DNA of 64,000 bases. Origin: Actinomycetota bacterium. Lineage in GTDB: Bacteria > Actinomycetota > Actinomycetes > Nanopelagicales > Nanopelagicaceae. Both the position numbers and the translations under genes were made by a program. Below, in pieces: positions 38,947 through 39,819 of the stretch (positions are counted from its first letter, which is position 1; each line of letters starts with the position of its first letter). Under the pieces are notes generated by a model. That model ran no database searches and was not told the DNA's origin. It saw only the letters and a list, made by a program, of their open reading frames with translations. The DNA is taken from the NCBI GenBank assembly GCA_026392935.1, contig JAPLBE010000011.1, forward strand, positions 124,001-188,000, read 5' to 3'.

Positions 38947-39819
38947 ATGGGATCCCCACCTCAACTATCTGAGTTAGAGAGAGCGCAGGCGCTTGTCAAA
39001 GCCAAGGTCTCCAGACAAGAGCGCGCGCGTGTTAAGAATCAGGTGAAGAGTAATGAATTGTCTATCTCTGAAGTTTTAGAGCTGGCTAGTAGAAACGAAG
39101 CCATAGCGAAAATGAGGGTTCTAGAACTGATTGAATCCAAGAGTGGTGTGGGCAAGATTAGGGGGAAGGCGATTTTAGAGAAGCTTGGAATTTCTCAAAC
39201 TCGACGTCTTCAGGGATTGGGTAGACACCAAAGGACTCAACTTCTCAAGGAATTTTCGGCACCATCTATTCTCACTCGTGGAAGGCTGATTGTACTTTCA
39301 GGACCTGGGGGAGTTGGTAAGAGCACTGTTGCTAAGAAACTTCGGCAAGAGTCACCATTTCTAGTCAGCGTTTCAGCAACAACTCGACCACCTAGATTTA
39401 ATGAAGAAGATGGCGTTGATTATCTATTTTTCTCGAAGGATCAATTTGATGCGGCGATAAAAGAAGGAACGTTCCTTGAATGGGCTGAGTTTGCTGGAAA
39501 TAGATATGGAACTCCATTTGCTCCGGTTGAGAAAGCTCTAAGCTCAGGAAAGAGTGTTCTTCTTGAGATTGAGATTGAAGGAGCGAAGCAAGTTAAAGCA
39601 AAGATGCCAGAAGCGCTATTAGTGTTTCTCGAACCACCAACCTGGGAAGAGTTGGTGTCACGTCTTGAGGGCCGAGGCACCGATAGCCCTGAAAGGCGAG
39701 CAGCGCGATTGGCACTTGCTCAGGAAGAGATGGCCGCAGCCTCTTTCTTCGATAAAGTCCTCACAAATGACCAGGTCGAGAAGGTAGTCGCCAGCCTGAT
39801 AGAATTCGCATCTGCCTAA
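38947..39819 (+). CDS. Fusion protein: actinobacterial integration host factor (mIHF) + guanylate kinase
   Basis: Residues ~1-103 mIHF-like (KSNELSISEVLELASRNEAIAKMRVLELIESKSGVGKIRGKAILEKLGISQTRRLQGLGRHQRTQLLKEF); rest Gmk (GRLIVLSGPGGVGKSTVAKKL, TRPPRFNEEDGVDY, FLEWAEFAGNRYGTP). Confidence 0.93.
   Translation: MGSPPQLSELERAQALVKAKVSRQERARVKNQVKSNELSISEVLELASRNEAIAKMRVLELIESKSGVGKIRGKAILEKLGISQTRRLQGLGRHQRTQLLKEFSAPSILTRGRLIVLSGPGGVGKSTVAKKLRQESPFLVSVSATTRPPRFNEEDGVDYLFFSKDQFDAAIKEGTFLEWAEFAGNRYGTPFAPVEKALSSGKSVLLEIEIEGAKQVKAKMPEALLVFLEPPTWEELVSRLEGRGTDSPERRAARLALAQEEMAAASFFDKVLTNDQVEKVVASLIEFASA

What the first reader, a model, noticed from the sequence alone, without database searches (positions are those of the whole stretch)
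38947..39819. mIHF-guanylate kinase fusion encoded as one ORF
Seen: residues ~1-103 are an essentially full mIHF-like nucleoid protein; after an ~8-residue linker (SAPSILTR) a complete guanylate kinase follows with Walker A GPGGVGKST. The join (39241-39300: CTT CTC AAG GAA TTT TCG GCA CCA TCT ATT CTC ACT CGT GGA AGG CTG ATT GTA CTT TCA) contains no ATG, GTG or TTG, so Gmk cannot easily be initiated separately. Established: mihF and gmk are adjacent separate genes in Mycobacterium and Streptomyces. Inference: a streamlined lineage fused an essential DNA-binding protein to an essential nucleotide kinase. This could tether (d)GMP kinase to the nucleoid, change its stoichiometry, or be followed by proteolytic separation.
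Basis: partly seen in the sequence, partly recalled or inferred. Interest (0 to 1): 0.8.

Follow-up and report, generated by a model that had tools for sequence, protein, structure and literature searches.

The report
Fused nucleoid protein and guanylate kinase
In a freshwater actinobacterium, a DNA-packaging protein and a neighbouring housekeeping enzyme (guanylate kinase) are really encoded as one protein; the join is real and old, arose at least three times in different actinobacteria, and looks like loss of the stop between two touching genes rather than a new kind of system, though what it does in the cell is untested.

Summary
Window 38947-39819 (+) is one uninterrupted 290-codon frame: actinobacterial IHF (residues 5-103), an 8-residue linker, and a complete guanylate kinase (112-287). 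It is the only copy of either domain in the 1.35 Mb genome. It is no assembly error: 149 of the 150 best matches in related genomes are the same full-length open frame, including a closed genome from a culture (IMCC25003, acI lineage). It is not unique to this lineage: the same architecture occurs in Microbacteriaceae (2.8-4.3 Mb genomes, annotated simply 'guanylate kinase') and in a third family; AU tests reject a single origin. Several genera of the window's own family keep two genes, some with the mihF stop abutting an in-frame gmk ATG (TAGATG), so stop loss in a tight operon is the likely route. Both domains are under strong purifying selection, key residues are invariant, the linker is not conserved, and AlphaFold predicts two ordered domains on a flexible link. 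In this gene no start codon with a ribosome-binding site precedes Gmk. Most likely: one bifunctional chain with both activities, Gmk carried to the nucleoid. Benefit of tethering, stoichiometry and proteolytic separation remain untested. I found no paper describing it.

The parts
38947..39819 (+). mIHF-Gmk fusion ORF, 290 aa plus stop TAA
   Evidence: Open frame; only copy of either domain in G000
38959..39255 (+). mIHF domain, residues 5-103 (N-terminal helix plus S13-like H2TH DNA-binding domain)
   Evidence: NF041260 107.3 bits, PF22525 86.1 bits; aligns end to end with sIHF 4itq and mIHF 6tob
39256..39279 (+). linker SAPSILTR, residues 104-111
   Evidence: Only segment with pLDDT below 50 is 106-108; linker positions 104-110 average 21% identity to relatives against 74% in Gmk
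39280..39807 (+). guanylate kinase domain, residues 112-287
   Evidence: TIGR03263 211.3 bits over cut-off 160.45; best fold match M. tuberculosis Gmk 1s4q
39301..39327 (+). Walker A / P-loop GPGGVGKST, residues 119-127
   Evidence: Sequence; G119, P120, V123, G124, K125 invariant in 93 fused proteins
38236..38937 (+). pyrF, upstream neighbour; its stop lies 9 nt before the fusion start
   Evidence: ORF list; neighbour order conserved in fused and unfused relatives
39850..40110 (+). rpoZ, downstream neighbour, with its own Shine-Dalgarno site
   Evidence: ORF list, SD duplex -7.5 kcal/mol, conserved order

Best explanation
The gene makes one bifunctional polypeptide: an N-terminal mIHF nucleoid protein joined by a short flexible linker to a complete guanylate kinase. 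It arose where mihF and gmk were already abutting genes in a conserved operon (pyrD-pyrF-mihF-gmk-rpoZ-coaBC), by loss of the mihF stop with the two genes in, or brought into, one frame. Both activities are retained and joined as two beads on a string. Shown here: the single open frame, single copy, recurrence in many genomes, several origins, selection on both domains, loss of the separate gmk start in many relatives. Inferred: that the chain stays intact in the cell, that it binds DNA and phosphorylates GMP, and that Gmk is therefore partly nucleoid-bound and made 1:1 with mIHF.
For: One frame, both family models above their cut-offs. Sole copies. dN/dS 0.01-0.11 for mIHF and 0.01-0.05 for Gmk in 13 close pairs, linker divergent. 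H2TH residues G69, R87, G90, G92, Q95 and Gmk residues K125, S143, R147, R150, E178, Y187, R239, R243, R254 invariant in 93 fused proteins from two origins. Unfused genus g8 shows mihF ...AGA TAG ATG... gmk in one frame, and spacer lengths of unfused relatives (median 17-23 nt in the nearest genera) match fused linkers (median 24-27 nt). All 28 unfused relatives keep a gmk start 7-12 codons before the P-loop, while 25 of 55 fused clade-A genes have no start codon at all 3-16 codons before it. Model: both domains confident, only residues 106-108 under pLDDT 50, pTM 0.60. Precedent: msIHF fused to EGFP, PAmCherry or HaloTag and replacing the essential native gene supports normal growth (PMC10028186).
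Against: No protein, RNA or read data. Some fused relatives (g2, g3, g9, g11, part of g1) still have an in-frame ATG/GTG/TTG near the join, several with Shine-Dalgarno-like pairing, so internal initiation of Gmk is not excluded in them. The AlphaFold model is of one chain without DNA.
Confidence: 0.8

Rival explanations
1. One messenger, two proteins: the fusion is cut after translation, or Gmk is also started inside the frame, so the functional products are separate.
For: Nothing here rules out proteolysis in the exposed linker (pLDDT under 50 at 106-108). Some relatives have in-frame starts near the join with SD-like sites, and a g1 subgroup shares an ATG in 'EFMK'.
Against: In the window the only in-frame starts after codon 60 and before the P-loop are GTG 39148 (codon 68, inside the DNA-binding domain, SD -2.4) and TTG 39217 (codon 91, SD 0.0). 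The linker is not conserved, so no specific cleavage site is kept.
Confidence: 0.15
2. The mIHF part is a decaying N-terminal remnant on a functional Gmk.
For: mIHF residues diverge faster than Gmk (55-64% against 74% mean identity to the window).
Against: dN/dS of the mIHF part is 0.01-0.11; the family score is far above cut-off; DNA-binding-domain residues are invariant even between independent fusions.
Confidence: 0.03
3. Assembly or sequencing error joined two genes.
For: A single lost stop or frameshift would look like this in one genome; no reads were available.
Against: The same uninterrupted frame is in well over a hundred independent genomes, including closed ones.
Confidence: 0.01

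Closest known systems
Stand-alone actinobacterial IHF (mIHF Rv1388 of M. tuberculosis, sIHF SCO1480 of S. coelicolor)
   Same: Full-length domain match, H2TH motif, same operon position upstream of gmk-rpoZ (PMC6155035)
   Different: Known ones are free ~105-residue proteins; here the C terminus runs on into Gmk
Bacterial guanylate kinase (Gmk, e.g. Rv1389, structures 1s4q, 1znw)
   Same: Complete catalytic domain with P-loop and GMP-binding residues
   Different: No start codon of its own in this gene; carries a DNA-binding domain at its N terminus
mIHF-Gmk proteins of Microbacteriaceae (Okibacterium, Mycetocola, Leifsonia), annotated 'guanylate kinase', 280-324 aa
   Same: Same two domains in the same order as one protein
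   Different: Independent origin (AU p 1.6e-44 against one clade); P-loop GPTAVGKG; about 43-46% identity

Membership tests
Actinobacterial IHF (NF041260 / PF22525) | Family model match above curated cut-off over the whole domain | tested here: met
   107.3 bits against 60, model positions 3-101 of 102
Actinobacterial IHF (NF041260 / PF22525) | Stand-alone ~105-residue protein | tested here: not met
   290-codon frame continues into Gmk; no second copy. NF041260 is an 'equivalog_domain' model, so domain membership still holds
Actinobacterial IHF (NF041260 / PF22525) | Binds and bends DNA | not testable with these tools
   Only indirect: H2TH residues conserved, purifying selection
Guanylate kinase (TIGR03263) | Equivalog model above cut-off | tested here: met
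   211.3 bits against 160.45, positions 1-177 of 180
Guanylate kinase (TIGR03263) | P-loop and GMP-binding residues present | tested here: met
   Invariant G119-P120...V123-G124-K125, S143, R147, R150, E178, Y187, R239, R243, R254
Guanylate kinase (TIGR03263) | Phosphorylates GMP | not testable with these tools
   It is the only Gmk in the genome, so activity is expected

The most novel reading that the evidence does not exclude
The fusion was selected, not merely tolerated: it places GMP kinase on the nucleoid and couples GDP supply, or its regulation by ppGpp, to chromosome compaction, which would explain why it arose at least three times and has been kept across most of the freshwater acI lineage.
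Probability: 0.2. Interest if true: 0.7.

Novelty: new variant of a known kind. Interest (0 to 1): 0.45.

Why it matters
Two essential housekeeping proteins, one of them among the ten most abundant in M. tuberculosis (PMC6155035), are locked 1:1 in one chain in some of the most abundant freshwater bacteria, and the same fusion evolved repeatedly. It gives natural replicates, with unfused sister genera, for asking whether a nucleoid protein can carry an enzyme without cost or with benefit. It also means that many database entries named simply 'guanylate kinase' contain a nucleoid protein, so surveys of stand-alone mIHF may miss it in these lineages.

Tried and rejected
A second mihF or gmk elsewhere in the genome: none. 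A single ancient fusion for all actinobacteria: rejected by AU test (p 8e-7). A single fusion within Nanopelagicaceae: not rejected (p 0.12), but g13 has a much longer join (60 nt against 24-27) and may be separate; 2-3 changes are needed on the trees, and gain against loss cannot be told apart. Restriction to streamlined genomes: rejected. Literature searches for a described mIHF-Gmk fusion found none in the open-access library. I recall from memory, untested, that curated entries for Tropheryma and Leifsonia Gmk note an unassigned N-terminal region.

Full report
OBSERVATION. Window 38947-39819 (+) is a single open frame of 290 codons. hmmscan gives actinobacterial IHF over residues 5-103 (NF041260, 107.3 bits, cut-off 60) and guanylate kinase over 112-287 (TIGR03263, 211.3 bits, cut-off 160.45), with Pfam in agreement. 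The PDB relatives are sIHF 4itq (6bek) and mIHF 6tob for the N-terminal part, which align end to end, and Gmk structures for the rest. The linker SAPSILTR and the P-loop GPGGVGKST are as described. In frame, 39241-39300 has no ATG, GTG or TTG; the two such triplets that the string contains (39278, 39290) are out of frame. Whole-genome searches of G000 (1.35 Mb, 22 contigs, 95.9% complete) find no other mIHF and no other Gmk. An HU-type nucleoid protein is present elsewhere.

NOT AN ARTEFACT. In 298 genomes of the same order, 279 have a match, and 149 of the 150 listed matches are uninterrupted frames across both domains. The search for related loci names several, including the complete chromosome of IMCC25003, one of the first complete acI genomes (PMC5301498). 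NCBI places Planktophila and Nanopelagicus in Candidatus Nanopelagicaceae. The window's genus code g1 contains IMCC25003 (G135: contig length 1,353,947 in both). That the window's family f1 is Nanopelagicaceae is inferred from this.

DISTRIBUTION. Within family f1, genera g1, g2, g3, g4, g9, g10, g11, g12, g13, g16 and g17 are fused, whereas g5, g6, g7, g8, g14 and g15 keep two genes. Outside the family, f31 is fused; its member L115 is identical to the 309-residue 'guanylate kinase' of Okibacterium sp. HSC-33S16, Microbacteriaceae. Leifsonia, Mycetocola and Labedella proteins of 280-324 aa carry the same two Pfam domains. In f29 only genus g89 (L083, L084) is fused among the genomes looked at, and homologues of it are also two-domain proteins. 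Mycobacteriaceae-like genomes (f4) have the two genes in line, often in the same frame with one stop between. Neighbour order pyrD-pyrF-mihF-gmk-rpoZ-coaBC is shared by fused and unfused members of f1.

ORIGINS. A tree of 80 loci on pyrD, pyrF, mihF, gmk, rpoZ and coaBC (linker left out) needs five changes of state, three inside the family; a tree on flanking genes alone needs four and two. One clade for all fused rows is rejected (p-AU 8e-7), as is Nanopelagicaceae fusions plus f31 (p 1.6e-44). One clade for all fused Nanopelagicaceae is not rejected (p 0.12). With the f29 fusion nested among unfused relatives, this gives at least three origins in Actinomycetes. These were quick trees under LG+G4, so branching inside the family should be read with care.

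ROUTE. In unfused genus g8, locus L055 reads ...AAG GGA AGA TAG ATG CAA GGT CGA...: the mihF stop abuts an in-frame gmk ATG. Distances between the two conserved domains are median 17-23 nt in the nearest unfused genera and 24-27 nt in the fused ones. Loss of a stop, or a small frame change, is enough. That the fused lineages passed through exactly this state is inference.

ARE BOTH DOMAINS WORKING? Thirteen close pairs give dN/dS of 0.01-0.11 for the mIHF part and 0.01-0.05 for Gmk; linker positions average 21% identity to the window. Across 93 fused proteins from two independent origins, invariant positions include G69, R87, G90, G92 and Q95 of the H2TH part and the P-loop lysine, S143, R147, R150, E178, Y187, R239, R243 and R254 of Gmk. 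AlphaFold gives mean pLDDT 89, one weak segment at 106-108, and pTM 0.60, which fits two rigid domains without a fixed mutual orientation. The closest folds are M. tuberculosis Gmk structures; the listed top 50 are all Gmk, so the mIHF fold rests on sequence matching.

SEPARATE Gmk? In 28 of 28 unfused relatives a gmk start lies 7-12 codons before the P-loop. In fused clade A (g1, g12, g16, g17), 25 of 55 genes have no in-frame ATG, GTG or TTG 3-16 codons before it. In the window the nearest are TTG 39217 (codon 91, no SD pairing) and GTG 39148 (codon 68). In fused clade B several candidates with SD-like pairing remain, so internal initiation is open there. The SD score is a simple duplex energy and several genuine starts of the window also score poorly (mihF itself -0.3, coaBC 0.1), so lack of SD alone is weak evidence; lack of a start codon is stronger.

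MECHANISM. The best-supported reading is one bifunctional chain. mIHF tolerates large partners: msIHF fused to EGFP, mNeonGreen, PAmCherry or HaloTag in place of the essential native gene supports normal growth (Dendra2 caused a slight delay) and localises to the nucleoid (PMC10028186). mIHF binds DNA without sequence specificity and presumably as a monomer according to the same paper, so a C-terminal domain need not block it. A Gmk attached to it would be expected to share its rapid, transient DNA binding. mIHF is essential, co-expressed with gmk-rpoZ (its deletion is polar on them) and among the most abundant proteins in M. tuberculosis (PMC6155035). Fusion therefore sets Gmk and mIHF equimolar; which way the amount moved is unknown.

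NOVELTY. The architecture is already present, unremarked, in public databases under the name 'guanylate kinase'. I found no paper on it in the open-access library, which does not cover most subscription journals. I rate it a new variant of known parts: real, widespread and convergent, with an attractive but untested functional question.

Noticed in passing
L090-L092, L096, L097, L099-L101, L103 (families f29 g59/g100 and f5 g21): pyrF and gmk lie only 30-99 nt apart with no mIHF frame between them, and P0001 finds only Gmk in these genomes; mIHF seems lost, moved or too diverged to detect in these small-genome actinobacteria.
   Followed up: partly
G659 contig C12:1089885-1090151 (same phylum, family f54): A weak mIHF-like match (51.8 bits, below cut-off) lies inside a 726-codon open frame, besides two ordinary mIHF copies.
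   Followed up: no
L028-L030, L032-L035, L039, L042, L043, L045, L046 join region: A subgroup of g1 shares an in-frame ATG in 'E(F/C)M(K/N)' 16 codons before the P-loop, a possible internal Gmk start.
   Followed up: partly
L066, L067 (genus g13): The join is much longer (60 nt between conserved domains in L066, against 24-27 nt elsewhere in the family), which suggests a separate fusion event.
   Followed up: partly
window 38938-38946 and 40111-40123: Neither the fusion gene nor coaBC has a Shine-Dalgarno site before its start, unlike pyrF and rpoZ; translational coupling is possible.
   Followed up: no
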